The notes beneath the pieces are model-generated. The model was not told where the DNA came from, ran no database searches, and saw nothing but the letters and a program-made list of their open reading frames with translations. A program made the translations under genes and the position numbers. Positions 1 through 31,837 of a DNA stretch of 40,257 nucleotides are shown here, piece after piece (the first letter of the stretch is position 1; every line of letters starts with the position of its first letter). Source of the stretch: Saprospiraceae bacterium (GTDB lineage: Bacteria > Bacteroidota > Bacteroidia > Chitinophagales > Saprospiraceae); assembly GCA_015490715.1 (NCBI GenBank), contig WFXH01000109.1, positions 1 through 40,257 of the forward strand, read 5' to 3'.

Positions 1-2539
1 CTCGGATGCGGATGTGGCCGCCGTCGTGGATCGTGTCGTAACTGATGAGGTCGCCGTTGCTGATGCCAAAGTTGTTGATGTCGCAGTCTACCGCGTCGAC
101 CAGTACGACCTCAAAGCAATATGCTTCGACCATATTGCCTGTCGCATCGTGCACTGTATCGCACTCTGCGACGCCCTTCCACGTCACCTCTTCGCAACAC
201 TCGGGTAGTTCGAGACAACGCTCGATATCGCAACAGGTGGGGCTTAGAAAATCGATTCGGTAGCAGAAGCGTGGAGTATCGATCAATCCAATGACTCCCT
301 CAAAGCACAGTTCAATAAAGAGATCTCCACCGGAAAAATAGCTCGTCTGGCTGATGATGTCTACAGCATTGTTCCGGAAGATAAAGCGACCGCAGTCGTT
401 CGCATCGTCGACCTGGATGGTCACGCACCAGTACTTTTGACCGGTGGTATCGTTGATTTTACACTCGATGGAGTCGTGGACCACAGGCTCAGTACAACAA
501 GGCTTGCGTATGGAGATGCAATCCTTGATATCGCAGCATTTCTTGCTGTCGAAATCAACAGTAAAACAGAGCTCATCATCATCGACCGAGGCAATATCGA
601 CGTAGCCTGTGATATAGACATCGTTGCCGACGACCTGTCTCTTCAGCGTACCGTCGATGATATCGCCGTTGTGAAGCTCAAAGCTAAAGCCGCCACAGTC
701 GAGGCCATCGGGCAGGTGAATTTTAAAGTAATAGCCCTTTTGGAAAATATTACTACCCGGCACGACAAAGCTATCGCATTGAGCTTCTCCCGTCCATGCC
801 ACCTGGGTACAGCATGGTTCGAATTCTTCATACGGAATGCAAGCTTTCAATGGGCAACAATCGGGATTGTCGGAAGTGAGCTCAAAGCACACTCCATTAA
901 AGCTCACAATTTTATTGTTCACCAATAGGACGTAATAACTCTTAAAGCACCCTTCGATGATGAGATTGCCCTGAGGGGTAATCGTCGCATCATAGTCGAG
1001 TAAAGTGGCATTGCTGTTCAACACCCATCGGCCACATTCGCGCCAGTTGAACACCTCCATGCGGAAACAGTAATTGAAGGAGTCGTTGTCGCTCGTATCA
1101 CACCATACACTGATGTCGTAACCGTGTTGGACACAGCAGATGGGAATAGGAATCGCTTTGGAATAAGTAATCTGTCTGTTATTCGCAGTATATTTCAGTG
1201 CCCAATCGAGCGAATCGACCCCTGAGGGCACGCGATTGGTATCGATGCACGAGGTGATGACGGTACTGCCGCCGACGTATTGGACTTCACACTTGTCGGC
1301 GGGAATGAATTTATTGCGTATTAATATCCCACACTGTACTCGTTGAGCATGCGCACTGTCGATGTGAAACTCCACGCAATAGTACTTTTTCCCATTGGGA
1401 TGAGGACGTGAAGGTGGCTCTTCGTCACAGTAAGTTTTTGCCACCCATATCTTCAGTTTACAATTGGGCACTTTGATACAGCCCTGTATATCGCAACACA
1501 CTAAATCGGGCGGTGCATAGGGGAAGGCGAGCTTATAGCACATCACTGTATCCTCCGCATCGATCAAATCGGGATCTAAACATCCTTTGAAGTGGTAGTA
1601 GCCATCCCCTTCAAACCCCTCTTGAAAAGTGCCATCCATGATTGGAAGATTGGATAAAAACACAGGTGTGTCGCACAGTGGGAGGCTATTGGCTAAATCG
1701 ATTGCAATGTCGAAACAAGTCGCTCCTTTGTGTACGTAGCCGTCCCTGATAATGTCGCAATAGACGCGTTCGTACACCACGGCCCAATCCATGTCGCGCT
1801 CGCAACACTGATTGAGGCTATCACAAAGAGTAATATCACAACACAGGGGATTGTCAAAGTCGACGGTGATGCATACCACCTCGGTCCCCGGAGGTATGTC
1901 GGCCTCGTTATAATTGACTTCGACAGAGTAATTATAACCTATCCACGACACGTTGACATCGGCAGGTATTGGTGGATCCAACACGACATCGAAGTTGTTG
2001 CACAAAAACGCACTATCCGATGGCTGAAAGCTAAAGCGCTTTGTGTAGGACGTCTGCCCATCCCTTTCCCTACAGGCGAGCTCCTCTTCATGCACCACGC
2101 TGCGATATTGACAGCAGCTTGGGGGTATATCGATACATTCCTTGATATCACAACAAATGCCATCATAGATGAAAGCATAGCATAGAGAGTCTTTCATGGT
2201 CTCGGGATAAAAACAATAATAATAGATAAATCCCTGAGGTTTGGCCGTAGCTATCAGGGGAAAGCCCGGTACGACCTCGGCGTTAAACTCCGCATCGGTC
2301 CATGTACATGATACATCTTGTGTATCAGGAAACCAGAATTCTACGCATATGAGCCCGTCAATGAAATCACATCGCACTTCTGCTTCGTAGCTTTCCTTTA
2401 CACATCGGTTGGTGATATCAAACTCTTGCCAGCCCTGGGCATTGATGTGTTGCATGATCCACAGTGAGAGTAATAAAGAGAGCAAAGCCAGGAGTTTCCA
2501 GCGATACTCCAAAGTCCGCATGCGCAATTGTTTTCCCAT
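1..2539 (-). CDS. Cysteine-rich modular secreted protein, partial (3' end outside window)
   Basis: I do not recognise the family. Reading the minus strand from the ATG at 2539 gives an open frame of about 846 codons with no stop before the window edge. The N-terminus is a typical signal peptide: basic residues, then a Leu-rich core (LLALLSLLLSLWIM), ending near INAQ at residue 35. The mature part has about 65 cysteines, roughly 8 percent. A motif of the form CCDIxxC recurs: CCDIKEC (about 2135-2161), CCDITLC (1823-1848), CCDIQGC (1478-1501), CCDIKDC (518-541) and CCDIERC (214-237). Degenerate copies lie near 1115-1141 (CCVQHGY) and 838-861 (CCPLKAC). Spacing is about 93-120 residues. Many copies are followed by a second CC pair and a Trp- or Val-rich strand, so each repeat is probably a disulfide-bonded beta domain. 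Whether a T9SS sorting domain ends the protein cannot be seen. An exported location is well supported; the function is unknown. Confidence 0.85.
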   Translation of the reverse strand, partial: MGKQLRMRTLEYRWKLLALLSLLLSLWIMQHINAQGWQEFDITNRCVKESYEAEVRCDFIDGLICVEFWFPDTQDVSCTWTDAEFNAEVVPGFPLIATAKPQGFIYYYCFYPETMKDSLCYAFIYDGICCDIKECIDIPPSCCQYRSVVHEEELACRERDGQTSYTKRFSFQPSDSAFLCNNFDVVLDPPIPADVNVSWIGYNYSVEVNYNEADIPPGTEVVCITVDFDNPLCCDITLCDSLNQCCERDMDWAVVYERVYCDIIRDGYVHKGATCFDIAIDLANSLPLCDTPVFLSNLPIMDGTFQEGFEGDGYYHFKGCLDPDLIDAEDTVMCYKLAFPYAPPDLVCCDIQGCIKVPNCKLKIWVAKTYCDEEPPSRPHPNGKKYYCVEFHIDSAHAQRVQCGILIRNKFIPADKCEVQYVGGSTVITSCIDTNRVPSGVDSLDWALKYTANNRQITYSKAIPIPICCVQHGYDISVWCDTSDNDSFNYCFRMEVFNWRECGRWVLNSNATLLDYDATITPQGNLIIEGCFKSYYVLLVNNKIVSFNGVCFELTSDNPDCCPLKACIPYEEFEPCCTQVAWTGEAQCDSFVVPGSNIFQKGYYFKIHLPDGLDCGGFSFELHNGDIIDGTLKRQVVGNDVYITGYVDIASVDDDELCFTVDFDSKKCCDIKDCISIRKPCCTEPVVHDSIECKINDTTGQKYWCVTIQVDDANDCGRFIFRNNAVDIISQTSYFSGGDLFIELCFEGVIGLIDTPRFCYRIDFLSPTCCDIERCLELPECCEEVTWKGVAECDTVHDATGNMVEAYCFEVVLVDAVDCDINNFGISNGDLISYDTIHDGGHIRIR

Positions 2540-2763: not shown

Positions 2764-3198
2764 TTATTTGCAGTCCTCAAGTGTCCATGCTTTATCGCTG
2801 CGGTACACCTGGCCGTTGATGAGTGCTACTTGCTGGTTATCATGATTGTACACGCGTATGAGATACGTTGCCGTCTTCCGCCCGAGATAGACCTCCTCCG
2901 TCGTTGCGGTCAACACATCACCGGCGCGAATGGGGACAAAGAGTTGTACGGAAGCGATGGTCGTCATACATTTCACACCATGACTATTGGCTGCAAAGGC
3001 CAGGGCGCTATCGGCCAGGGAGAAGGCGATGCCTCCATGTGCGATGCCGAAACCATTACACATTTCCTCGCGCACCCGCATACGCAACACCGCCCTCCCC
3101 TTGTCGATCTCAACCCGATCGATACCGAGCCATTGGCTAAAGGCATCGCGACGATACATGCAATCCACAATTTGTTGAGGAGTGAGTGCACCTTGCAT
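2764..3198 (-). CDS. paaI: PaaI-family hotdog thioesterase
   Basis: This 144-residue protein has the hotdog-fold thioesterase signature of the PaaI family: NGFGIAHGGIAFSLADSALA (about residues 47-66). It carries the Asn, the His-Gly-Gly and the Asp at the end of the central helix that form the acyl-CoA site. The length matches single-domain PaaI enzymes (about 130-150 residues). The family hydrolyses aryl- or acyl-CoA thioesters in the cytoplasm; in phenylacetate catabolism PaaI clears dead-end CoA esters. No other paa gene is in the window, so the substrate is open and the symbol marks family only. The ATG at 3198 lies one base after the TGA of the upstream glycosyltransferase gene, so the two are probably co-transcribed with coupled translation. 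Family assignment is strong; the pathway is inferred. Confidence 0.88.
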   Translation of the reverse strand: MQGALTPQQIVDCMYRRDAFSQWLGIDRVEIDKGRAVLRMRVREEMCNGFGIAHGGIAFSLADSALAFAANSHGVKCMTTIASVQLFVPIRAGDVLTATTEEVYLGRKTATYLIRVYNHDNQQVALINGQVYRSDKAWTLEDCK

Positions 3199-3199
3199 A

Positions 3200-4234
3200 T
3201 CACTTGTTTTTTCCGTAGTAATTTTTCACAAATCCCCTTGGCTCTTTCCCCTTCCAATGCTGCCATAGCCCCCATGCCAATCCCAGGCCGTAAGCACCCA
3301 CTTGGAGGACAAAGACAATAGGTGTCCATAGGGCAGTCTTCCACTCCCGATAGCGAAGCCAAGCACCAACCATCAAGAGAAAGCTGAGCAGTAGTGCCAT
3401 CGCAATGAACAGCGACAACACCCATAGGGGCAACCATCGCAGCATCGCACCTACTACAATCCCAATCCCCCCTACCCACACAACAAGAGGTAGCAAGTGG
3501 AGCCACTTCAACATCTCGCGATGTCGGCGGTACAAGGCGATGCGCGCCACTCCCCAGTTGAAGATTTGCTTAAAAAACTTCCACCAGTCGGTACGGCGCT
3601 TGTGGTAGACATAGGCATCGGCGATGAGGCACACGCGAAATCCCGCCTTGTAGATACGGGCCGAGTAATCCATATCCTGCCCATGTCGAAGCGAAGTATC
3701 CATACCACCGATCGCTTCGTACACCCGGCGGTGTATACCCATGTTAAAACTTCGCGGATAAAATCGCTCGGGGGCACGCCTCTTCCCACGCGTTCCGAGG
3801 GTGCCGATGTACGATGTCATGGTGTAGTTGACGGCCTTTTGAAAAGGTGTAAAAGAAGCATGCGCCTCGTCGGGGCCACCAAAGGCATCGCATCGGTGGC
3901 GCTGTAAATGGCGGTCAATGCGCTTCAGCCACATTGGGGGAAATAGACAATCGGAGTCGACAAATATGAAATATTGCGCCGTACTGTTGGCCATGCCGTA
4001 ATTTCGCGCAGCACCCGGGCCTTGATTGTTTTGATAGAGCCATCGCAGCTGCAAACCCGACGTCGAGCGATAGGATTGGATGAATTCCCGAAAGCCATCG
4101 GTAGAGCCATCATCGACGAACAGGAGTTCAAACAGCGTACGAGGAAAATCGAGTTCTTCTGCCGAAGCCAGAAGTTCTTTGACCTCTGCTAAGCGATTGT
4201 ATACAGCAATGATGATACTGTACTTGAGCGACAT
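3200..4234 (-). CDS. Family 2 glycosyltransferase with C-terminal membrane segments
   Basis: This 344-residue protein has a GT-A glycosyltransferase domain. IIIAVYNRLAEV (residues 7-18) is the nucleotide-sugar binding strand, FVDDGSTDG (39-47) is the second acidic motif, NNQGPGAARNYG (69-80) is typical of GT2 enzymes, and FVDSDC (91-96) holds the metal-binding DxD. Two or three hydrophobic helices follow, at about 250-325 (LLPLVVWVGGIGIVV, VLSLFIAMALLLSFLLMV, PIVFVLQVGAYGLGL). The enzyme is therefore anchored in the inner membrane with its catalytic domain in the cytoplasm. GT2 enzymes of this layout add sugars to lipid-linked polysaccharide or glycolipid precursors; donor and acceptor cannot be told. 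It precedes the thioesterase gene by one base and is divergent from the gene at 4349. Family is certain, role is not. Confidence 0.9.
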   Translation of the reverse strand: MSLKYSIIIAVYNRLAEVKELLASAEELDFPRTLFELLFVDDGSTDGFREFIQSYRSTSGLQLRWLYQNNQGPGAARNYGMANSTAQYFIFVDSDCLFPPMWLKRIDRHLQRHRCDAFGGPDEAHASFTPFQKAVNYTMTSYIGTLGTRGKRRAPERFYPRSFNMGIHRRVYEAIGGMDTSLRHGQDMDYSARIYKAGFRVCLIADAYVYHKRRTDWWKFFKQIFNWGVARIALYRRHREMLKWLHLLPLVVWVGGIGIVVGAMLRWLPLWVLSLFIAMALLLSFLLMVGAWLRYREWKTALWTPIVFVLQVGAYGLGLAWGLWQHWKGKEPRGFVKNYYGKNK

Positions 4235-9687: not shown

Positions 9688-10788
9688 ATGCTTCAAGTGT
9701 TGTTGCTTATGCATCTGATTGTTAGAGTTGTACTCCTCGTCATATTTCTGATGGTGGCCATCGCATTACTTCATCTCCATGCGTATGCTCAAGTTCACGA
9801 AAAAGACACCGCAGTACGTGCTTTCACGAATACTCCACCATGGACGATATGGGAATACGAGGGAGATATCCAGTGGAAAGGGGTATGGGATGTGGATCAG
9901 CGACGCGGAAGGGGTATGTGTTATTGGCGCAATGGTGCGGTCTACATGGGAGATTGGTCGGCACATCAGCCCAATGGGGTCGGTACACTCTTTTATCCCA
10001 ATGGAATCACGCTCAGTGGACAATGGCGCAACGGGAGGCTCATCCGTCGCAGCTTTGCGCACACTTTTGAAGAGTATAAGCTTGATTCGTGTCCTGTCCA
10101 AGGGGCTGTGCTTCGCGATACGAGGGCTACACTGCACATGGTATCTATCGGCATTGATCAATACGTGCATCTCGAAGCTCTCGGTCGAAGCGATTGCGAT
10201 GCACTACGCATTGCAGAGTTATGGTCGTCTTTGCACGAGCAACACACCCAATTGGCAGTACTCATCAACGAGCGAGCATCGGGTGCTGCGGTACAACGAT
10301 CTTTACATCAAACACTATGTGCTCTTCAGCCGCAAGATACCCTGATACTGTACTTTTCAGGGCATGCCTTGCCGGGGCGCATGCTCCTCTCGGATTTCAA
10401 CGGTTACGGGAGTACCATTTCATACAGAGCTCTCTTCCAAAAAATAGTACAACGTCAACCTGCTATTGTGTGGATGTTTTTTGATGCGTGTTATTCCGGG
10501 AGTGCATTGGAGGTCTTGGAGGCCGTCGTCCCCGACAGTGTGCGATCGCGATGGAGTGTATTTTGCTCTTCCACTGCTGAGCAAAAGTCCCTTCAAAAGG
10601 AAGGACAGATCAGCGTCTTCACTCAATACCTCGAATCGGGATTATTGGGAGCAGCCGATGCCAATGGCGATGGTATTGTTCGCTCGGGAGAGCTTTTTAA
10701 CTATTTGCGCTGGCACGTTTCGAAGGCCACGAGCGGTATGCAGACGCCCGTGTTTTGGGGCAATGAGGCTCTTCAACTGTCGCCTTAA
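9688..10788 (+). CDS. Exported caspase-like (C14) protease with MORN repeats
   Basis: This 366-residue protein starts with a long hydrophobic signal or anchor (VVLLVIFLMVAIALLHLHAYAQ, residues 14-35). Residues about 56-118 hold MORN-type repeats (YEGDIQWKGVWDVDQRRGRG, YWRNGAVYMGDWSAHQPNGVG, FYPNGITLSGQWRNGRL). A caspase-like domain follows. HMVSIGIDQY at 150-159 is its first strand, LYFSGHALPG at 221-230 carries the catalytic His226, and FFDACYSG at 264-271 carries the nucleophile Cys269. A DANGDGIVRSGE segment (324-335) resembles a calcium-binding loop. Bacterial caspase homologues cleave after Arg or Lys or act in signalling and cell death; here the signal peptide puts the protein outside the cytoplasm, so a role in envelope processing is more likely than intracellular suicide. 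Fusions of MORN with C14 domains are known in bacteria, but the job of this one is unknown. It ends 5 bases before the convergent DUF5689 stop. Confidence 0.85.
   Translation: MLQVLLLMHLIVRVVLLVIFLMVAIALLHLHAYAQVHEKDTAVRAFTNTPPWTIWEYEGDIQWKGVWDVDQRRGRGMCYWRNGAVYMGDWSAHQPNGVGTLFYPNGITLSGQWRNGRLIRRSFAHTFEEYKLDSCPVQGAVLRDTRATLHMVSIGIDQYVHLEALGRSDCDALRIAELWSSLHEQHTQLAVLINERASGAAVQRSLHQTLCALQPQDTLILYFSGHALPGRMLLSDFNGYGSTISYRALFQKIVQRQPAIVWMFFDACYSGSALEVLEAVVPDSVRSRWSVFCSSTAEQKSLQKEGQISVFTQYLESGLLGAADANGDGIVRSGELFNYLRWHVSKATSGMQTPVFWGNEALQLSP
10414..10425 (-). repeat. Dispersed motif GTATGAAATGGT
   Basis: This full match lies within the caspase-MORN coding region, antisense to the gene, flanked by CT upstream and AC downstream. 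Confidence 0.45.
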
Positions 10789-21219: not shown

Positions 21220-22137
21220 CTAAGAGGATATCAACGCTTCTGGTATAGGGGTGCGTTTTCGATCGATATCCTGCCATGCATCACCATGGGCTCGTAGCCA
21301 CTGCGGCACAGTGGCAATCGTAAATTCCATCGGAGAGGTCAGGTCGGCCAACACCTCCCAAGGCAAGGGCATGCTCACCGTCGCTGCCTCGGTGGCCCGC
21401 GTACTATAGGGCGCTACGACCGACTGCATCGGGTGATTGCGATATACATCGATCAACAACTGCCCCTGTCGTTTTCCCAACCGACGCTCCGTGGTGGTGT
21501 TTGCCACCTTCTTGATGGTCAGCTCAGCAATTTTAAACGCCGCCCCAAATACGTGCTGAAAACTGTATCGCGGCTGGATGGGACAAAAGATGTGTACGCC
21601 CTTCTTCCCTGAGGTCTTCACATAAGGGCTCAAACCGTACGCTTTTAAAATATCGCGCAAGACCAACGCCACTTCTACCGAAAGCCGAAAAGCATCTTCG
21701 ATTTTATACCCCTCCTCCAACGGCGGGTCGAGATCGAAAATCACAAAGTCGGGACGATAAAAATGCGGCGCTCGTACAGGCATCATGTGCAACTCCAGCG
21801 TGTCGATATTGACCAAATACAACAGATCGCGAAGCCCTTCTAATACGATGTATTCCGCCTTTTTGTGAATTCCCAGTTCAACCGAACGAATAAAATCCGG
21901 TGCACCTGCGGGTCTGTTGCGCTGAAAGAATGCAATCCCAGGCCAACCCTCTACAAATCGCTTGAGTATCACCGGCCGCCCCGAAATATGAGGCTGCATG
22001 AAATCGTAGATTTCATAATAATATTCGGCCACTTCCAATTTGGTATACCCCTTGGTCTTGTACAAGACCTTTTCGGGATGGGTCAACCATTCGACTGACG
22101 GACCTAAGATTTGATATAATCGCTCTTTGCTGTACAC
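21220..22137 (-). CDS. Stand-alone LigD-type polymerase/primase domain
   Basis: This 305-residue protein is the polymerase (archaeo-eukaryotic primase) domain of LigD without its ligase or phosphoesterase domains. Diagnostic parts are HPEKVLYKTKGYTKLEVAEYY near the N-terminus, SGRPVILKRFVEGWPG, FDLDPP (catalytic Asp135 and Asp137), TSGKKGVHIF (175-184, the nucleotide-binding SGxKGxH), LLIDVYRNHP (with the third metal ligand Asp230) and VVAPYSTRATEAATVSMPLP. Such domains fill gaps and add ribonucleotides during Ku-dependent end joining. No Ku or ATP-dependent ligase is in the window. The start is GTG at 22137. Its stop converges on the CBS gene. Confidence 0.88.
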   Translation of the reverse strand: MYSKERLYQILGPSVEWLTHPEKVLYKTKGYTKLEVAEYYYEIYDFMQPHISGRPVILKRFVEGWPGIAFFQRNRPAGAPDFIRSVELGIHKKAEYIVLEGLRDLLYLVNIDTLELHMMPVRAPHFYRPDFVIFDLDPPLEEGYKIEDAFRLSVEVALVLRDILKAYGLSPYVKTSGKKGVHIFCPIQPRYSFQHVFGAAFKIAELTIKKVANTTTERRLGKRQGQLLIDVYRNHPMQSVVAPYSTRATEAATVSMPLPWEVLADLTSPMEFTIATVPQWLRAHGDAWQDIDRKRTPIPEALISS

Positions 22138-22330: not shown

Positions 22331-25300
22331 TCACCGCTGAACGACGAAGCGTACGGTACGGCTCTGGCTACCGTCGCTGACGCGCAATTCATAGACCCCA
22401 ACAGGCAGGTAACGCACTGGAATGGTGAGTACTCTATTTCCCTTGAGATATTGCTCTTCGGCCGAATGGTACACGCGCTTTCCCTTGGTATCGAAGAGGT
22501 CAATCGTGAGGCGGCTTTCACGTCTGGTGTAGAGGTAAATAGATGCCTTGTCCCTGATGGGATTGGGACGTACCTCGACACTCAAATCATCCTCATTGCT
22601 TGGCCCCGGCACGTAAATACGCACCTCATCGGAATAATTTATCTTGCCCTGACCTTCGTGCATCTTCAGTCGGTAGATGTAGAGGCCCTCTCGACCGATG
22701 TCGTAGTCGTCGTAGCTGCACTTATGGAGACAGGTATCACCGCTCCACTCTCGAAGTACGGTAAATGTCTCCTCCGACTGATGACGTCGCTCTAAGGCAT
22801 AACTCAACAAGTCTTTTTGGTCGAAGAGCTCCCATTGGAGGACATTGTGATCTATTTCATGCCAGCCGGTAAATTGTTTGATCTCTACGGCCAGCACTCC
22901 GTAGACCAAACCGACATCGTAATGGGGATTGTATTCACCGGGTCGGACATTGACCAAGTCGGTAGTACCGGTTCCGTATCGATTGGTCACATCGCTATTG
23001 CGCGTGTCATCACTCAGCGAGGGCCCGTTGGTAAAGGCGTACCCCGCAGGTGGAATGAATTTCAAGTAACATCGCCGTGGTGGTATGCCCTTTAACATGT
23101 ACTCACCCTTGTCGTCGGTTGTGGTTTCGCAAATCATTTGGTGCTGCACGTTGTACGCGCGTACGATCACGCCTTTTACAGGGGGCTCGCCGGGATCTTG
23201 GAGGCCGTTTTCATTGGCATCAAACCAGACGAAATTGCCGACGCGGGCTTCGAGGTAGAGGCCTACGTCGATATCATCGCGCACATCCCCACTTTCAAGC
23301 TCCACGACGTGGGAGCTATTCGATCCATTGCTGTGGTCGAGGTCCGAATCAAAGTTTCTATCCCTACCCTGGTGCGGCAAGGTGGAGACCATGCCATTGG
23401 GCATACGCACTTTGATGTAATACTGCCCCGGCGGCAAGCAGACCTCCCAATAACCATCATTACTCGCAATCGTGGGGTGGCCGCGCGTGTAGACAACCTT
23501 CACGAGTCTATCCGTCTGGGCATCGTAGATGGCTATACGCACGCCGTTGATGCCATTTTCACCGGGATCTTGTACTCCATTGGCATTGAGATCGAGCCAA
23601 ACGACATCGCCGAGCTTTGCACAGCGATAGAGCCCGAGGTCCCACGACATATCGGCCATCAGCGGTGGAACGAAAAAGATCGATGTCGTGCCAAAGCCGT
23701 GTCCTCCGTCGACATCACTGTCCATTTGATCGTCTGTACCCTGATTGGCTTTGGTGATCGACCATCCTGCCGGCACGTCAAATTTCAAATAATAATCGCC
23801 TGGCACGATATCCGTAAACTCGTAATGGCCCTGTGGATCAGTGACCGTCACGGCTACGAGGTTGCCGTCAGCGGCATACAAATACACTGTTACACCCGGT
23901 AGACCGGGTTCATCGGGCTGCTGGAGACCATCGCCATTGATGTCTTCCCAAACATAATCGCCTAAGCTGGAAAGCCCGACTAATCCGGCATCGTAATCCA
24001 TGTAGCTCTGCCCAATCTGCAAGGTCACCGCAGGTCCCTGACCAAAGGAGTCTACATCGCTGTCCTTGGCCTCCACCGTCGCATCGGGCAGGGTCCACTC
24101 CATCTGCTGCATGCTTGTCGGAGGTTCGAAGGTCAAGTAATACGACTCATCAAACATCAATAGGTCAAAGAGGTAGTATCCATTAGCATCGGTGGTATCC
24201 ACCGCGATGAGCACACCGGTGCTATCCCACACGCGGACGATGACGCCTTCTACACCTGGCTCGTCGGGATCCTGGACGCCATCGCCGTCGTAATCGTACC
24301 ACACATAGTCGCCGAGCTTCGGATACACGGCGGATGAGGAAGGATCGTGATCGTCTTCGTCTTCCCCTTTGTGGAGGTAATCACCCGTGATCATGTCGTC
24401 CATATTGCTGCCCGGCATGACGCTCTGCTCATGCGGAGCATTGGACCCCGGACGACTGTCGGATTCGAAGTGGGAAATAGAAAGCCATTTCGAAGTATCG
24501 AGGCCATTTCTGCAATCCAGACAGGGCAGCTCGATACTGTAGATTTCCGCATAATTGATCCAGGAGTATATGTCCGGATCCTGAGGCATCTGGACCCGCA
24601 GTTTTATCTCCACACTAAAGCTATCGCCGTGTTGGAGATGGCCCGTATAGGTATACATTGGGCCCTTGGGCGTCATGGTCCACCCGGGGTTGAGCGTCGG
24701 ATCAAAGACGTAGCCCTCCGGCACATAGTCGACGATGGTGACACGCATCTGTGGACATTGTTGTTCAAATACTTCTTTTGTTAGGGTAAAACTGCTCCCC
24801 AAAGGATTATTGTATTCAGGTATGCACTCATAACACGGTGCACTGCCCTGATTGTACACACTGATGCGATAGCGAATGACGGATCCCACCTGAACGTTGG
24901 CACGATAGGGAATCATCTTTTTGCGCAGGGCCAAATCGAGCACCGATACGTAGACGGGGTCGTGATCGTCTTCATCGCCAGCGGGATCGTCCTCGCCCGG
25001 CTGAGCCTTCCCGTGTCCCGTCAATTTGTTATCCGATCGACCTCGCGGCACGCCACCGCCGTCGTTGTCTTTATCGCTGTCGGGTTGACTGTCAATATCG
25101 CTTTGGGTACCGCCGAGCGTATCGGTAAAGGAAGCGATTTCGAAGTAGCTCGTCCAATCACTCCCCGGCTGCGCTTTAAGCTCAATGTGTAGGTTTTCAC
25201 ACCGACCGGGGTAAATGCGCTTGGGCAATACATAGGTGGCTGTACGCGAAATTCCGTCCCATTGCCACTGAGCATTAGCAGTCGGATCAAAGTACATTCC

Positions 25301-28300
25301 ATCGGGAATGTAACCGATGATCTGGACATTTTCAACCGGTTGGGCCCCTTGATTACAGACGGTGATGAAGAAATTATCCCGCTCTTCGTACCGCATGAAA
25401 GTGTAGAGGCTTGACTCCGTACAGGCAAATCCCGGCGCTCTTCGTAGGGCAATCAGGGCCACATCATACACCGGAATATCGGCACAGGCGTCGTCGACAG
25501 CTTCCGACTCTTCTATAAATTGATCCATATAGTCGGCAATGAATCTGTCCTCTCTTGGGTCGAATTGTCGTGCAGTATCCTGTCTGACTCCTCCTTCTCC
25601 TTTTCCAGCTTGCTCTTCTTTGCGCTTTTTCTCTTCTTCCTCACGCCTTTTCTTCTCTTCTTCCTTTTTGCGTGGCTTTTCTTCCTTTGGCTTCTCATCT
25701 CGGGGTTTGTCGTCCTTGGGCTTGTCGTCTCCAGGACGTACTCCGCCTTTTTCAAAGAGTTCAAGCAAGATTTGAAGGCTCTTTTCATTGAGACCTGCAA
25801 AATTCCTCAACCCCTTCGGCCGAAGTGTAGTCGAGTCGCAGGCCACGTAGCCATTGTAATTATCCCAATTCCATTTCACAGTGATGCACACGTTATACCT
25901 GTGCACCTCACCAGGGTTGATTCTCTGATTCTCGGCTAACCTATAAATATAGGTGTTGCCAAAGGGTCGTTGGTTGAGAGGCCGACCAGAATGACCCACA
26001 CTCGATGTATAAGTCACGCCTCCTATAATCAGATGTTGATCGAAATACGGCATATCCCAAAGCATGTATTCATCTGCTTTGCCTCCCAGATTGGATACTG
26101 TAATGTCGTAACAAATCTCATATTTCAGCGGCGAGAGCTGGTGGATCTGCACATCATCCGACTTATCCAGCGTCAGGTACGGCACATCGCCACAAGCTGC
26201 ATCCGCGGTATCAATTTGGCCGTCTAAGACAGGCGTGGTATCCGGTCCGCCCGGAGGTGCGACAATCCCGTAATCAATCGACGCACGGTTGTAGAGCCCG
26301 CCAAAGTCGCTGAGTCCCTGCTCAACAAGCGCACAATCATCGTATCGATTGTCGCCCACCGTATCACTGAGATGAAGTATGCCTCCAACAGAGATGTAAT
26401 AGGTATGTGTTGCTCCCGACATGATTTGCACACTATCGGCCAGCAACCAACGACCAGTAGTATCCAGGCTTAATGGAAAGTTAGGCAGCGGTGGTCCAAG
26501 TGGACGCTGGATTTGCACCCATCCCGATACATTGGTGATGACAAAGTCGTCGTCAAAAAACGTACTGTCCCACAGGGTATAGCGCGCATAAAATGTCGGA
26601 ATGGCCCTCCATGGCAAACTAAACCACGTATAATTCTCCACCCGGATGACGTAATACGCCCCAAAACGGTGCGTGTTTGGATCGTACGACAGGGAATACA
26701 GCCGCTTCTCCAGGCGGATACAAGTATCCAGAGGTACGTATACGCTGCACTGCGTCGAGCACGTGCCATCCGTAACCGTCACGGTGTGAAGCCCCGGCAA
26801 GAGATATTGCGCCCGTGGCCCGCGCTCACCATTGGACCATTGGATGCTGAGTTCGGTCATCGATTCCACGCCAAAGACCTGTACCTCGGCCTCACCGGGC
26901 TTTCCATCTTTACAACGTGCAGGCGATACCAGAGTCACGACGCAGTACATCGAATCGGGCTGCTCAATCCACACACTGGCCGTGTCCAAACATCCATTGG
27001 CATCCGTGACCGTCACGTAATGTCTACCAGCATTGAGTTGTACCGCCGTAAAATCGGTCTCGCCATTATCCCACAGAAAACTATACGGTGCCGTTCCCCC
27101 AAAAGCCTTGACCATTGCGCTGCCGTTGCTCTGTCCGTAACACTGTACAGCACTGAGCATGTTTGCGATCGCCATTAAAGGCTCGTTACCGGCATCGCGA
27201 AGGGTATCGTTGGCACAAATGCATTGGGCTGCGTTGTCGTAGCTCGGATCCGATAGGATAAACAACAAGCCATTGCGCACATCACAGGCCGGAGGAAGAC
27301 TGTCGGCAAAGGGAAATACATCGCCCACCGCCATCGGTCCCGTCAGGATATAACTCGTCAGATAGGTCGCCGGCGCTCCAGTCGAATCGGCACAGTAGAC
27401 ATCGATGACGAGCTGCTCACCAACGTCCAGAGCTACATCCTGCAGCTGGAGGCTCCCCTGATAGTTACGGTATATACTGCTCACACAATACTCCACAGCA
27501 CCATCTAAGCTTACCGCTGATGCGCGTTTATCGACGTAGTGCGTGTTTTTACCCACCAGGGTACGCAATTCCATGCACGTCGACATCTGAGCAGCACATG
27601 AGATATCCATCGCATAGCTGTACACTTCAGTACGCACAAACTTGCGTTCACCACAGCTCCAGCCCGCACCACTCTCTACGTCGATGGTAAAGGACGTCGT
27701 CAGGGGTGAACTGAGATCAAAGCCTCCAGAAGGCATGGAGAGCTTCAACACCGTATTGCCAAAGGCGTCCTGCCCCACGCCGGCAAGATTCAAACAATTG
27801 GGCGACGAAGTACATTGGAAAGACCCCGGTACATAGACGAGGCCCGATTCGAGGATGAGGTAGACGGTATCGGTTTCGCTGGTGGTGTTTTTCTGCAGTT
27901 GCAAAAAGGAGATGCTGACTTCCTGAGTAGCTGTGCGGCAGTTTTCTACCGATTGACTTGCCAGGGAGATGGAAGCGATATAGGGTGTTTCCGCACCGTC
28001 GATGACGAGCCCCCCCGTAGCGATTTGTACGTTGTCATTGGTGGCAGGATCGCCACAGGGCCGCATGCCGCGTCCGCGAAAGACAATCGAGCTACCCGAT
28101 ATGAAATCGCAGTCGGTGGTAAATTTCAATTCGACAATGGCCGCCCGTTCATCCGGTGTTAAGGCATCGAGCGTACCCGGCAAGCCTTTGTCGCCGACAC
28201 CGGGGTGATCTTCGATATCGATGTACAAGACATTGCCGTTGACCGTGGGCTGTATCGCGGCAGTCGTACCTGTATTGGCAGGATACGTGACATTGATAGG

Positions 28301-31300
28301 TGTCTGAACCGTGATTCCGGGAGGTAAGTACACCTCTATGCGAGGATCGTCTAAATAAGCTGCTTGTGCGCTGTTGATATTTAACAAGATGGTTTGCTCC
28401 TGGCACAGCTGCATCGGTATCGGAGGTTGAGACAGTATTTCGAGCTGTACCTCGCTGGGATGGATTTCATAACTCATCTCGCGTTTAAGGATATAACACC
28501 TTCTCACCTCATCAATGGTCATTCCTGGTTCGTAACAACGACCATAATACAATGTAACTTGACCATCTAAGCACCCATCTGCAAGACCTATTACTTGCCA
28601 ATGCTTCGGATCATTGATGTAAAAGACACGCGTACCCATCTCAATAAATCCATCGGCATTGGGATAATACGTTGTCGTACCATCTTCAACGATATACCAA
28701 TCCATCAATACACCGTTGGGATCGTCCAGATAAACCCAGATATCTCCCTGTGTGGTTCCGTTATATGTAGGATTGAGCATCACATCCCATAGTACTGTAT
28801 CCGTCGTGGTCTGTACATGGCCACCTCCTGAAAAGTAAAGTGCTGCTCCCGCTTTTGTGATATTAAAGTAATCCGTGAGAGTTGTACCACACGATATGGA
28901 ATGTTCGTCCCATTGGCTCGGCGTAAAGGCATCATCACCCATCAAGCCCATCGACTTCATAGCCCAAAATACGGTGTCTTTACAGATCTTCGGGCGATAT
29001 ACAAAATCCAGAGCAGTAATCCAGTATTCGTATGGAGCTCGCAAGGGGCCGCCTCGATCTGCAAATAATTGATCTAAATTGATAAACTCGATCTTACCGG
29101 GGGATTCGATGACATTGGCATCGGGAATGGGAGTATTGCCTCCGTGATAGTGAAAGACGGCCGTCCCCGGCTCATAGTAAAAATTGGAAGGCCAATCGGT
29201 AATAGTAAAACTCGTGGGAACTGCTAACTGGCGAAACTCATTTAAGAAGTTAAAATACCCCTCTCCACTGCCGAGATACTGCCGCAAATAGTATCGACGC
29301 AGAAATGTACAGCCATCTCTGTTCCAATTACCGACGACATAAGAAATATGACGAACACTGAGAATATTCATATAAGAGTTGAGCTCCTCACATCGATAAA
29401 TTTTCACAGTGGAAGTGTCCCCCGTATAGGGATCATAGGTATTAAATACCCTCGTCTTGGTCTTTACAATGTCGTGCCCGCCTTTAAAGATCGATGCATT
29501 GACTCTAAAGTACGCCTTGATATAGACGGAATCGCCCTGATCCCATTGTGACTTGCACGGGCTTAAATCGTAAAGCGCTATATCGTTTTGTACGGTAGGC
29601 GAAACGGTACACTGAATAGGTGCCCCGCCACCCGCGGGGATGATCGTCACCTCTGCATCGCCAAGGGGAGCATACCAGGTAGGCGTGGTATTTTCTTCTG
29701 ACACGTTGTCGCAATATCGACCTGTGCGATCCTTCAGGTCGAAATCCATGTACATATGGTTAAACGGTTGATTGGCATTGGGACCACTAACGGGCAGATA
29801 CACTACCGCCCCCCAATTGGCCTCTATGGTATCGTTGTTGATGGCGTGGTCCCATTGGATGCTATCGGGATGCGCTTTGCCCGTACCATCGGGAATGTTA
29901 TCGTTGTCGTAATCCGCAAGTCCCGTCGATATCCTTTTAAACGTAAATAAAAACGGTATCGCTCCATTTTGATCCGATAGGCATCCACAATGTTGGACAA
30001 GATCCAAAGTTTGACATGAAAACAACACACCATCTCCACTGCAGTCGACATCGTTGTATTTTGTACGGTGCATGAAATGTAGCGGAATATTGGGCCCGCC
30101 ATTGGTGCACTCAAAGCGGAAAGGCAAGAGGATAGCAAAATTGAGCCAACGGATTTGATTGGGAAATTTCAACACCAAAGTGTCGTTTTTCATACTCACC
30201 TGTATCACTCCCCCATTAGTAGCGGTAATGGTGCTCCCCCCTGTATAGACCAAGCCCGTATTTGCCAGGGGAATCTCCAAACATATGTACCCCTTGGTGC
30301 TCGATCGCAAATACGCCGCTAACTCCGAATAGTTTATTCGCATCAGAAAATTCATCCCCGCATACATATCCGTGGGCATCGAAACGGTGTAATTTGCTCT
30401 TACATAGGGATTATAGGGATAATACCGCCTCGCAACTTTTGGACTTACATCACAGGGGCCGTGGTAGAAAACTTCGGTATACGTCCAATACCAACCTACA
30501 TAAGTACTATTCCGACACCCTTCAATACACTCCAAGTTACTTGTATAAATTGGTATTTCAATATCTACACGTTCACCTGGTTGTAATAGGAAATTTGATG
30601 GGAACTTGAAATAATAGCGCCTATTCGTAGGTTGGATCACCGAGCAATAGGCATCATACATTCCAATGGTATTACTTATGGAGTCATCTATAGTAAACAA
30701 AAAGTTACCATTCCCATCGCGCACCACCAGCGGCGCATCGTCCATATGAGAATTATTTGCCGTGCTATAATGAAAGAAAATATTGCGTGCAGGAGCAGAA
30801 CCGTTGTTGATGATGCTGAAAACAATTGTCTTCGGCATTCCTCCCTCGGCATTCGAACCATCAAAACAGAAGTCGTATTCCGGATTGAAGTATTGAAGGC
30901 TCAAATTCGGAGCACCATCGGTGACCATGCTCACCTGCTGCACCGTCAGCGTCCGCTGACACTCCTCTCCCTCACATCCCCAGTAGGCGTAATAATAGGA
31001 ATCGTTATTCCGACAGCTGGTGATGATATAATTTCGCCGCAAGACGACCGACTCGCCGTTATCCATCAACGCATCCCCGTTGCCAAATTCGGCAAATATC
31101 GACGGGTCAATAAAATAACAGATGGTGTCGTTCGAGTACGTACCCGTTATGACCGTTCCATTGGGTACGGTTTCAAGCGACTGCGTTTCAGTGCCGGGCC
31201 CGTCGACGATGCACAGGGTAAAGCCCTCTGTCAAGTAGCCGAGTCCTCCGTTGCGCACCGTGATCTCACTGCTCACTACAGCTCCTATGGGCCCCGAGAC

Positions 31301-31837
31301 ATTGCCACTGTGCGTCAAAGCCAGAGCTGCTGTCAATACATCGTAATTGCGCACACCATTGCTGGTGTCGGCCGTACTCCCTCCGTCCCATCGCAGGAGT
31401 ACACCATCTTTAAAGAGCCCCCCTTGATGCAGATGCTCCCGTGCCCGACAATCCGCATCGCGCTCCCAGCGCATGATAAACCATTCCCCCGGATATAGCG
31501 GACTCTTCGTCACCGAAAAGACCTCTCCCCCCGCCGCCGATGTACCTACATAGCTAATCTGTATACCCCCTGTCGACGACGTCACCGACGCCGAATTGGG
31601 AATATACCGCACCCCCGGAGGAAAGCGCAATTCCACCTCCAAATTGGTCACCGTGTCTACCACCGCAATGCGCACATAGTTCTCATTCGGAGCTTGAATG
31701 TCGCACACCACGATATCCGAAATCGGCAACTCCGTATTGTTTTGATCCACGTACAAGATCACTGCATCCTGAGCGTGTACTCGCACTACTCCCATGAGAA
31801 GGCACACCACACCCATCAGGTATACCAACCGTACCAT
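22331..31837 (-). CDS. Giant T9SS-exported surface protein with SprB, DUF11-like and SdrD-B-like domains
   Basis: This is a 3168-residue cell-surface or secreted protein. The signal peptide is MVRLVYLMGVVCLLMGVVRV, ending VHAQ. Residues about 30-1550 are beta-rich repeats with conserved-repeat (DUF11-like) character and scattered cysteines. Residues about 1558-1628 form a SprB-type repeat (VQCYGQSNGSAMVKAFGGTA, YVTVTDANGCLDTASV). A second related unit follows. DUF11-like units lie around 1850-2020 and 2110-2450. Between them, at about 2033-2090, is a Lys/Glu-rich charged linker (KPKDDKPRDEKPKEEKP and on). Four SdrD B-like domains follow near 2505, 2624, 2738 and 2861 (LGDYVWYDYDGDGVQDPDEP, LGDYVWEDINGDGLQQPDEP, LGDVVWLDLNANGVQDPGEN, VGNFVWFDANENGLQDPGEP); their DxDGDG loops probably bind calcium. 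The last 80 residues are a type A T9SS sorting domain (VEVRPNPIRDKASI, YLPVGVYELRVSDG). It is most likely an adhesin or stalk-like surface protein. The gene is monocistronic by its own promoter and terminator. Confidence 0.93.
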   Translation of the reverse strand: MVRLVYLMGVVCLLMGVVRVHAQDAVILYVDQNNTELPISDIVVCDIQAPNENYVRIAVVDTVTNLEVELRFPPGVRYIPNSASVTSSTGGIQISYVGTSAAGGEVFSVTKSPLYPGEWFIMRWERDADCRAREHLHQGGLFKDGVLLRWDGGSTADTSNGVRNYDVLTAALALTHSGNVSGPIGAVVSSEITVRNGGLGYLTEGFTLCIVDGPGTETQSLETVPNGTVITGTYSNDTICYFIDPSIFAEFGNGDALMDNGESVVLRRNYIITSCRNNDSYYYAYWGCEGEECQRTLTVQQVSMVTDGAPNLSLQYFNPEYDFCFDGSNAEGGMPKTIVFSIINNGSAPARNIFFHYSTANNSHMDDAPLVVRDGNGNFLFTIDDSISNTIGMYDAYCSVIQPTNRRYYFKFPSNFLLQPGERVDIEIPIYTSNLECIEGCRNSTYVGWYWTYTEVFYHGPCDVSPKVARRYYPYNPYVRANYTVSMPTDMYAGMNFLMRINYSELAAYLRSSTKGYICLEIPLANTGLVYTGGSTITATNGGVIQVSMKNDTLVLKFPNQIRWLNFAILLPFRFECTNGGPNIPLHFMHRTKYNDVDCSGDGVLFSCQTLDLVQHCGCLSDQNGAIPFLFTFKRISTGLADYDNDNIPDGTGKAHPDSIQWDHAINNDTIEANWGAVVYLPVSGPNANQPFNHMYMDFDLKDRTGRYCDNVSEENTTPTWYAPLGDAEVTIIPAGGGAPIQCTVSPTVQNDIALYDLSPCKSQWDQGDSVYIKAYFRVNASIFKGGHDIVKTKTRVFNTYDPYTGDTSTVKIYRCEELNSYMNILSVRHISYVVGNWNRDGCTFLRRYYLRQYLGSGEGYFNFLNEFRQLAVPTSFTITDWPSNFYYEPGTAVFHYHGGNTPIPDANVIESPGKIEFINLDQLFADRGGPLRAPYEYWITALDFVYRPKICKDTVFWAMKSMGLMGDDAFTPSQWDEHSISCGTTLTDYFNITKAGAALYFSGGGHVQTTTDTVLWDVMLNPTYNGTTQGDIWVYLDDPNGVLMDWYIVEDGTTTYYPNADGFIEMGTRVFYINDPKHWQVIGLADGCLDGQVTLYYGRCYEPGMTIDEVRRCYILKREMSYEIHPSEVQLEILSQPPIPMQLCQEQTILLNINSAQAAYLDDPRIEVYLPPGITVQTPINVTYPANTGTTAAIQPTVNGNVLYIDIEDHPGVGDKGLPGTLDALTPDERAAIVELKFTTDCDFISGSSIVFRGRGMRPCGDPATNDNVQIATGGLVIDGAETPYIASISLASQSVENCRTATQEVSISFLQLQKNTTSETDTVYLILESGLVYVPGSFQCTSSPNCLNLAGVGQDAFGNTVLKLSMPSGGFDLSSPLTTSFTIDVESGAGWSCGERKFVRTEVYSYAMDISCAAQMSTCMELRTLVGKNTHYVDKRASAVSLDGAVEYCVSSIYRNYQGSLQLQDVALDVGEQLVIDVYCADSTGAPATYLTSYILTGPMAVGDVFPFADSLPPACDVRNGLLFILSDPSYDNAAQCICANDTLRDAGNEPLMAIANMLSAVQCYGQSNGSAMVKAFGGTAPYSFLWDNGETDFTAVQLNAGRHYVTVTDANGCLDTASVWIEQPDSMYCVVTLVSPARCKDGKPGEAEVQVFGVESMTELSIQWSNGERGPRAQYLLPGLHTVTVTDGTCSTQCSVYVPLDTCIRLEKRLYSLSYDPNTHRFGAYYVIRVENYTWFSLPWRAIPTFYARYTLWDSTFFDDDFVITNVSGWVQIQRPLGPPLPNFPLSLDTTGRWLLADSVQIMSGATHTYYISVGGILHLSDTVGDNRYDDCALVEQGLSDFGGLYNRASIDYGIVAPPGGPDTTPVLDGQIDTADAACGDVPYLTLDKSDDVQIHQLSPLKYEICYDITVSNLGGKADEYMLWDMPYFDQHLIIGGVTYTSSVGHSGRPLNQRPFGNTYIYRLAENQRINPGEVHRYNVCITVKWNWDNYNGYVACDSTTLRPKGLRNFAGLNEKSLQILLELFEKGGVRPGDDKPKDDKPRDEKPKEEKPRKKEEEKKRREEEEKKRKEEQAGKGEGGVRQDTARQFDPREDRFIADYMDQFIEESEAVDDACADIPVYDVALIALRRAPGFACTESSLYTFMRYEERDNFFITVCNQGAQPVENVQIIGYIPDGMYFDPTANAQWQWDGISRTATYVLPKRIYPGRCENLHIELKAQPGSDWTSYFEIASFTDTLGGTQSDIDSQPDSDKDNDGGGVPRGRSDNKLTGHGKAQPGEDDPAGDEDDHDPVYVSVLDLALRKKMIPYRANVQVGSVIRYRISVYNQGSAPCYECIPEYNNPLGSSFTLTKEVFEQQCPQMRVTIVDYVPEGYVFDPTLNPGWTMTPKGPMYTYTGHLQHGDSFSVEIKLRVQMPQDPDIYSWINYAEIYSIELPCLDCRNGLDTSKWLSISHFESDSRPGSNAPHEQSVMPGSNMDDMITGDYLHKGEDEDDHDPSSSAVYPKLGDYVWYDYDGDGVQDPDEPGVEGVIVRVWDSTGVLIAVDTTDANGYYLFDLLMFDESYYLTFEPPTSMQQMEWTLPDATVEAKDSDVDSFGQGPAVTLQIGQSYMDYDAGLVGLSSLGDYVWEDINGDGLQQPDEPGLPGVTVYLYAADGNLVAVTVTDPQGHYEFTDIVPGDYYLKFDVPAGWSITKANQGTDDQMDSDVDGGHGFGTTSIFFVPPLMADMSWDLGLYRCAKLGDVVWLDLNANGVQDPGENGINGVRIAIYDAQTDRLVKVVYTRGHPTIASNDGYWEVCLPPGQYYIKVRMPNGMVSTLPHQGRDRNFDSDLDHSNGSNSSHVVELESGDVRDDIDVGLYLEARVGNFVWFDANENGLQDPGEPPVKGVIVRAYNVQHQMICETTTDDKGEYMLKGIPPRRCYLKFIPPAGYAFTNGPSLSDDTRNSDVTNRYGTGTTDLVNVRPGEYNPHYDVGLVYGVLAVEIKQFTGWHEIDHNVLQWELFDQKDLLSYALERRHQSEETFTVLREWSGDTCLHKCSYDDYDIGREGLYIYRLKMHEGQGKINYSDEVRIYVPGPSNEDDLSVEVRPNPIRDKASIYLYTRRESRLTIDLFDTKGKRVYHSAEEQYLKGNRVLTIPVRYLPVGVYELRVSDGSQSRTVRFVVQR

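What the first reader, a model, noticed from the sequence alone, without database searches (positions are those of the whole stretch)
1..2539. Modular cysteine-rich exported protein with recurring CCDI motif
At least seven modules of about 93-120 residues share a CCDIxxC-type core, and about 65 cysteines occur in 846 residues. Bacteroidota exported proteins are usually cysteine-poor compared with this. I match it to no family. It may be a disulfide-locked surface fibre or binding array.
Basis: partly seen in the sequence, partly recalled or inferred. Interest (0 to 1): 0.62.

Follow-up and report, generated by a model that had tools for sequence, protein, structure and literature searches.

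The report
Disulfide-rich Ig-domain surface array protein
The window holds the front half of a large secreted bacterial protein built from about fifteen antibody-like domains in a row, each apparently pinned by three to five sulfur bridges, probably a stiff surface fibre of a kind that the protein family libraries searched here do not list.

Summary
The minus-strand frame 2-2539 encodes 846 residues with 66 cysteines (7.8%; 20 other window frames together 1.2%) in eight modules, the last cut by the contig end. It is the N-terminal part of a T9SS cargo. The rest (741 aa, ending in a type A sorting domain) starts contig C48, followed by a complete paralogue (1291 aa). A congener carries the uncut gene (1700 aa, 15 modules). 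No Pfam or NCBIfam model and no PDB sequence matches the modules. AlphaFold gives a module a confident Ig-like sandwich (pLDDT 94.7). Every complete domain counted has an even cysteine number (53 of 53: 41 ten, 8 eight, 4 six). Two cysteine pairs are lost only together: strands B-E (48 both, 39 neither, 0 single) and F-G (81, 5, 0). dN/dS is 0.11-0.14. The ten-cysteine array was found in two Saprospiraceae genera; looser relatives with fewer cysteines are scattered through the phylum. Best reading: a disulfide-stiffened surface fibre or adhesin stalk, a new variant of a known kind. Fibre function is inferred. DsbB and VKOR were not detected in this genome, an unsolved tension.

The parts
2..2539 (-). 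N-terminal 846 aa of the Cys-rich array protein; frame continues off the contig end
   Evidence: orthologue complete on L034/L061:1398-6500
2435..2539 (-). hydrophobic N-terminus, putative Sec signal peptide (about residues 1-35)
   Evidence: read by eye; no signal-peptide predictor was available
2114..2404 (-). domain 1 (10 Cys, counted from the second C of a junction to the first C of the next)
1805..2113 (-). domain 2 (8 Cys; strand B and strand E cysteines both absent)
1460..1804 (-). domain 3 (10 Cys)
1136..1459 (-). domain 4, divergent: no CCDI end, 6 Cys
812..1135 (-). domain 5 (10 Cys)
497..811 (-). domain 6 (8 Cys; strand B and strand E cysteines both replaced by Tyr); first half of the two-domain model
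197..496 (-). domain 7 (10 Cys); modelled alone at pLDDT 94.7, pTM 0.85, Ig-like sandwich
2..196 (-). domain 8, truncated by the contig end; its counterpart in the congener lies in a recently duplicated two-module unit
2764..3198 (-). 4HBT thioesterase; flanking marker, also next to the array gene in the congener (L034:772-1206, 144 aa)
3200..4234 (-). family 2 glycosyltransferase; its C-terminal part lies beyond the thioesterase in the congener too (synteny marker)

Best explanation
The gene encodes a T9SS type A cargo: a putative Sec signal, about fifteen Ig-like beta-sandwich domains joined with almost no linker (the last cysteine of one domain is usually followed directly by the first of the next), and a C-terminal sorting domain. 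Each typical domain holds ten cysteines, read as five intradomain disulfides. Two pairings have direct support from coupled loss (strand B with E; strand F with G); the other three (end of strand A with the C-terminal cysteine; the N-terminal and BC-turn cysteines with the CC of the FG turn) are inferred by elimination and topology. Steps inferred, not shown: Sec export, oxidation in the periplasm, T9SS translocation, removal of the sorting domain, and display at or release from the cell surface. Most likely work: a long (about 60 nm at roughly 4 nm per Ig domain, a recalled figure), stiff, protease-resistant fibre or adhesin stalk in which disulfides do what isopeptide or ester bonds do in Ig-domain adhesins of Gram-positive bacteria. 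I found no separate head domain, so any binding surface would lie on the Ig domains. My probability is about 0.85 for 'secreted disulfide-bonded Ig-domain array' and about 0.5 for fibre or adhesion as its job.
For: Open frame, cysteine content and module cutting. Sorting domain: TIGR04183 42.7 bits on the C-terminal piece and 36.7 on the paralogue, cut-off 23; PF18962 44.6 and 39.3, cut-off 27. T9SS translocon SprA_N 483.7 bits in the same genome, 0 of 14 control genomes. Full-length orthologue of 1700 aa next to the paralogue, behind the same thioesterase and glycosyltransferase, in a congener. AlphaFold: two modules pLDDT 91.1, pTM 0.63; one module 94.7, 0.85, seven strands. Second-look PDB rows: the 50 listed are, as far as their titles tell, Ig-superfamily chains, best Z 7.3, 81 aligned, rmsd 2.6. 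Even cysteine number in 53 of 53 complete domains: 41 with ten, 8 with eight, 4 with six; three cut-off pieces were left out. Coupled cysteines: strand B/E 48 both, 39 neither, 0 single of 87 rows, 5 partial rows set aside; F/G 81 both, 5 neither, 0 single of 86 rows. Three rows of other families carry the B/E pair at 26/62 instead of 24/64, which keeps i+j = 88. dN/dS 0.137, 0.133, 0.113 over 846, 711 and 947 codons.
Against: No functional datum exists. The Ig match is middling (Z 7.3; Foldseek best E 0.027 for one module; for two modules E 1.6e-5 but TM about 0.3 and rmsd 12), and the tool notes that Z under 8 may reflect only a common arrangement. The two-module pTM of 0.63 does not show a rigid junction. 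DsbB (found in 6 of 14 control genomes) and VKOR (3 of 14) gave no match and DSBA (8 of 14) only a partial hit under its cut-off (20.9 against 25.6 bits), in a genome 98.6% complete, so the oxidant is unexplained. With fixed positions and a tolerance of two, one row of the B/E test is discordant (47/39/1). Not all rows keep i+j = 88: four array rows align at 22/64 or 24/62 and one other row at 28/62, which I take as gap placement. The rows are related paralogues, so the counts overstate independent events; by my reading there are three joint B/E losses inside the arrays. The link of C109 to C48 is by homology and synteny, not by a continuous contig.
Confidence: 0.55

Rival explanations
1. A released or surface-held binding protein: many Ig domains that each bind a ligand (glycan, peptide, metal-carrying compound), with disulfides only for stability outside the cell, not for a mechanical role.
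For: I found no head domain; loops and inserts differ between modules while the core stays (alignments). T9SS cargo may be anchored or released (abstract start of PMC10202324 in the listing). Acidic bias: 272 D+E against 120 K+R in the full-length orthologue.
Against: No module matches a described binding family. dN/dS is low in the five stretches tested (0.086-0.209), with no sign of diversifying surfaces, though averages cannot show single sites. The acidic bias is absent in the G042 protein (58 against 57).
Confidence: 0.25
2. The cysteines bind metal ions (a metal-storing or metallothionein-like coat) rather than forming disulfides.
For: About 8% cysteine, CC and CxxxC spacings, acidic composition; no DsbB or VKOR found.
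Against: Two cysteine pairs sit on strands that neighbour each other in an Ig sandwich and are lost strictly in twos; by general knowledge a metal site usually needs three or four ligands, so loss of a site should remove more than two.
Confidence: 0.08
3. A gliding-type adhesin of the SprB class.
For: Large repetitive T9SS cargo in a Bacteroidota cell with SprA.
Against: The sorting domain is type A (TIGR04183), while SprB is exported with a type B domain (recalled); no SprB repeat was matched by the array proteins, although that Pfam model does match another window protein.
Confidence: 0.05

Closest known systems
Unnamed Ig-like domains of long Bacteroidota proteins (e.g. G134:C315, G186:C128, G796:C3 and loci)
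   Same: Same length and a shared profile (hhalign probability 88.3, E 2.9e-6 between the arrays and six such modules); shared core cysteines 12, 78, 89, 94, 100 in most rows
   Different: Three to nine cysteines in the aligned segments; 0 of 36 rows have the 24/64 pair, four have a slid version; one to three copies in the loci seen. In ten such proteins scanned no Pfam model reached its cut-off over the domain; GEVED overlaps it on L077 under the cut-off (20.5 against 24.4 bits)
Cross-linked Ig-domain adhesins of Gram-positive bacteria (Mobiluncus giant adhesin, PMC10619420, passages read)
   Same: Long row of Ig-like domains with intramolecular covalent cross-links; the passages describe one disulfide between adjacent strands of one sheet
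   Different: Cross-links there include isopeptide, ester and thioester bonds as well as disulfides; other envelope and anchoring; no sequence comparison made
TraA of Myxococcus with Cys-rich repeats TIGR04201 (PMC3325183, passages read)
   Same: Cys-rich repeats suggested as a rigid stalk, with a C-terminal sorting tag
   Different: TraA has a PA14 head and another repeat family; the array proteins gave no TIGR04201 hit in the NCBIfam scan, though I did not confirm that this model is in that release
T9SS type A cargo proteins (TIGR04183 / PF18962)
   Same: C-terminal sorting domain above cut-off; SprA present
   Different: The cargo part is a domain array without a library model

Membership tests
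T9SS type A cargo | C-terminal type A sorting domain | tested here: met
   On the C48 piece, 42.7 bits, and the paralogue, 36.7 bits, cut-off 23; not in the window part itself, which is N-terminal
T9SS type A cargo | Sec signal peptide | not tested
   A hydrophobic stretch ending in AQ is seen by eye; no predictor was available
T9SS type A cargo | T9SS translocon in the genome | tested here: met
   SprA_N 483.7 bits
Ig-like beta-sandwich fold | Beta-sandwich of about seven strands that superposes on Ig domains | tested here: met
   Seven strands, pLDDT 94.7; listed PDB rows are Ig domains by title, Z up to 7.3, rmsd 2.6, 81 aligned, a middling score
Ig-like beta-sandwich fold | Canonical B-F core disulfide of vertebrate Ig domains (recalled) | tested here: inconclusive
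   Coupled losses point to B-E and F-G pairs instead; coordinates could not be measured
Pfam or NCBIfam repeat family | Module match above cut-off | tested here: not met
   0 families for P0001 up to E 10; for P0002 and P0003 the matches all lie in the C-terminal sorting region
TraA Cys-rich repeat TIGR04201 | Match to TIGR04201 | tested here: inconclusive
   No hit up to E 10 in the NCBIfam scan; presence of the model in that release not confirmed
SprB-type gliding adhesin | SprB repeats (PF13573) | tested here: not met
   No match in the array proteins; the model is in the library, as one search shows
SprB-type gliding adhesin | Type B sorting domain | tested here: inconclusive
   Only type A models matched; presence of a type B model in the library not confirmed
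Isopeptide- or ester-bonded Ig adhesin | Lys-Asn or Thr-Gln intramolecular cross-link | not testable with these tools

The most novel reading that the evidence does not exclude
An undescribed Bacteroidota Ig-domain family has, in one Saprospiraceae lineage, gained paired cysteines until most of about fifteen tandem domains carry five disulfides (up to about seventy per molecule), giving a covalently pinned surface fibre that is the disulfide counterpart of isopeptide-locked Gram-positive adhesins, made in a cell without recognisable DsbB or VKOR and so by a T9SS-compatible oxidative folding route not yet known.
Probability: 0.3. Interest if true: 0.65.

Novelty: new variant of a known kind. 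Interest (0 to 1): 0.42.

Why it matters
Tandem Ig-like adhesins are known to be stabilised by isopeptide bonds, ester bonds or calcium (PMC10619420, passages). An array with about five disulfides per domain in a Gram-negative cell would be a further solution, in a phylum where disulfides in T9SS and gliding proteins have just become topical (PMC12635249, passages). The family also offers a natural series of three to ten cysteines per domain in which pairs come and go together, so the order in which disulfides were gained and their effect on stability could be tested. It raises a concrete question too: how so many disulfides are made where no DsbB or VKOR is detected.

Tried and rejected
Plain repeats or an artefact frame: rejected by purifying selection and homologues elsewhere. 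Two independent genes on C109 and C48: less likely, because the congener has one uncut gene followed by the paralogue on one contig. Module-level match to PDB sequences: none with the array profile up to E 10; one row at E 0.96 with the wider profile, taken as chance. In one search, 86 of 100 relatives matched the whole paralogue, but in the listed rows only G000, G001 and G042 match the modules; the others match its C-terminal region (the list is cut). Literature: searches listed, by titles and abstract starts, no paper on this array; several lists were capped (20 of 27, 15 of 74, 15 of 748) and the library holds open-licence PMC papers only. A complete disulfide map from coupled loss: only two pairs are informative; cysteines 12 and 100 are both present wherever both are covered (48, 0, 0), which shows nothing, and 1, 35, 88, 89 stay ambiguous. 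The gene-2 C-terminal dN/dS row was taken out of frame (22.8% identity) and is dropped. The two-domain PDB rows are dominated by Fab chains and give no function; a bacterial Ig family that is not among the rows is not excluded.

Full report
What is in the window. The window is contig C109, 1-40257, of a 2.45 Mb genome in 115 contigs, 98.6% complete. On its minus strand, 2..2539 is one open frame of 846 aa that runs off the contig end. It has 66 cysteines, 7.8%; 20 other window frames that I chose together have 144 in 11,655 residues, 1.2%. Cutting at the recurring CC-D-x-x-C motif and at one further CC gives eight modules, the last truncated.

The rest of the gene. Contig C48 begins with a 741-aa frame of the same modules that ends in a T9SS type A sorting domain (TIGR04183, 42.7 bits, cut-off 23), followed by a complete paralogue of 1291 aa, eleven modules, with the same end (36.7 bits). 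A congener, G001, has on one contig the end of a glycosyltransferase gene, a 144-aa thioesterase, an uncut array gene of 1700 aa with fifteen modules, and the start of the paralogue; the window has the same thioesterase and glycosyltransferase upstream of its array. By contig number and length, G001 corresponds to JALWKB010000216.1 and JALWKB010000122.1, a Saprospiraceae MAG. I infer that C109 and C48 hold one gene. The break lies where the congener has a two-module unit duplicated at 96.8% DNA identity. Over the 195 bases that can be compared, the two copies within a genome are more alike (92.8% and 94.9%) than orthologous copies (85.6% and 88.7%), which suggests homogenisation by recombination.

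It is a real, maintained protein. Nei-Gojobori dN/dS between the two species is 0.137 (N-terminal part, 846 codons), 0.133 (C-terminal part, 711 codons) and 0.113 (N-terminal part of the paralogue, 947 codons); five stretches of gene 1 range from 0.086 to 0.209. One further row, taken out of frame, is dropped.

Family searches. Pfam and NCBIfam at E up to 10 give nothing for the window protein, and for the other two only matches in the C-terminal sorting region. A PDB sequence search with the module profile gives 0 hits up to E 10. With a module profile, 4 of 396 genomes of the order match (the own genome, G042 of the same family, G134, G186), 2 of 395 of the class (own and G796) and 1 of 395 of the phylum (own). 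The groups are sampled (the congener was not drawn) and at most twelve candidates per genome were scored, so these are lower bounds. G042 (by length JALWRC010000064.1, also a Saprospiraceae MAG) has a compact form: 551 aa, four ten-cysteine modules and a weak type A end (18.7 bits, under the cut-off of 23). With a profile widened by the modules of G134, G186 and G796, 26 of 198 genomes of the order and 9 of 198 of the phylum match, the own genome included in both. Ten proteins of this wider set were scanned: 8 of 10 have PF18962 and 3 of 10 PKD_4 above the cut-off, and no model reached its cut-off over the domain itself; GEVED overlaps it on L077 under its cut-off (20.5 against 24.4 bits). Profile comparison of the arrays with six such modules gives probability 88.3 and E 2.9e-6.

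Fold. AlphaFold gives the pair of domains 6 and 7 a mean pLDDT of 91.1 and pTM 0.63, and domain 7 alone 94.7 and 0.85, with seven strands. The strand letters A to G are mine, by order. The chains that Foldseek and VIA-align list for one module are, by title, antibody, CD33, beta-2-microglobulin, MHC-like and similar Ig-superfamily chains; best Z 7.3, 81 aligned, rmsd 2.6, Foldseek best E 0.027. These are middling scores: the fold class is likely, a particular relative is not.

Cysteine bookkeeping. Counted from the second C of a junction to the first C of the next, all 53 complete domains in the window, C48, G001 and G042 have even numbers: 41 with ten, 8 with eight, 4 with six (the divergent domain 4 of each gene copy); the cut-off pieces at contig ends were left out. 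A first count of 25 of these gave 21 with ten and 4 with eight. This phase also explains why the first domain has one leading C and the sorting region is preceded by one.

Coupled loss. In domain 7 numbering the cysteines are 1, 12, 24, 35, 64, 78, 88, 89, 94 and 100. There are 92 distinct aligned module rows (arrays and wider relatives; loci L064 and L065 dropped as duplicates), of which 5 were partial. Of the other 87, 48 have a cysteine in both strand B and strand E, 39 in neither and 0 in one only. In three rows of other families the pair sits at 26 and 62 instead of 24 and 64, so i+j stays 88, as for neighbouring antiparallel strands; one more row has 28 and 62, and four array rows align at 22/64 or 24/62, which I take as gap placement. 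With fixed positions and a tolerance of two, one row becomes discordant (47, 39, 1). Positions 78 and 94, in strands F and G, are both present in 81 rows, both absent in 5 and never single. The rows are related, so these are few independent events; inside the arrays I read three joint B-E losses. Pairs 12-100, and 1 and 35 with 88 and 89, are inferred from topology and elimination only.

Mechanism. The likely path is Sec export, periplasmic oxidation, T9SS translocation and display or release. SprA is present (483.7 bits). DsbB and VKOR were not found, though the same searches find them in 6 and 3 of 14 control genomes; DSBA gives only a partial hit under its cut-off, with 8 of 14 controls positive. 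The oxidant is open; other thioredoxin-fold families were not tested. That disulfides form in Bacteroidota envelope proteins is shown for SprF, PorG and GldK in Flavobacterium johnsoniae (PMC12635249, passages). Rows of cross-linked Ig domains as stalks are described for Gram-positive adhesins (PMC10619420, passages), and a Cys-rich stalk was suggested for TraA (PMC3325183, passages). By analogy I take a stiff surface fibre or adhesin stalk as most likely; no result here shows adhesion.

Novelty. A tandem Ig-domain surface protein is a known kind. About five probable disulfides per domain, stacked almost without linkers in a T9SS cargo, with no model in the libraries searched, make this a new variant. 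Literature searches listed nothing on it, judged by titles and abstract starts in partly capped lists of an open-licence library.

Noticed in passing
window 22331-31837 (-): A 3168-aa protein with SdrD B-like domains (4 stretches), a SprB repeat, DUF11 and a T9SS sorting domain, and 70 cysteines, 2.2%: a second giant surface protein in the same contig.
   Followed up: partly
window 36778-38565 (-): A 595-aa frame with no Pfam match at E 0.001, lying between two frames with T9SS sorting-domain matches (34927-36702 above the Pfam cut-off; 38650-40257 under it, cut by the contig end).
   Followed up: no
window 9688-10788 (+): By eye, MORN-like repeats followed by a caspase-like stretch; not run against a library.
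   Followed up: no
window 21220-22137 (-): By eye, a LigD primase/polymerase-like protein; not run against a library.
   Followed up: no
G000 whole genome: DsbB (PF02600) and VKOR (PF07884) give no match and DSBA (PF01323) only 20.9 bits against a cut-off of 25.6, although the genome encodes proteins with over a hundred cysteines.
   Followed up: partly
L034:3777-4958: Two-module unit duplicated at 96.8% DNA identity; copies within a genome are more alike than orthologues over the 195 bases compared, which suggests gene conversion and possible repeat-number variation.
   Followed up: partly
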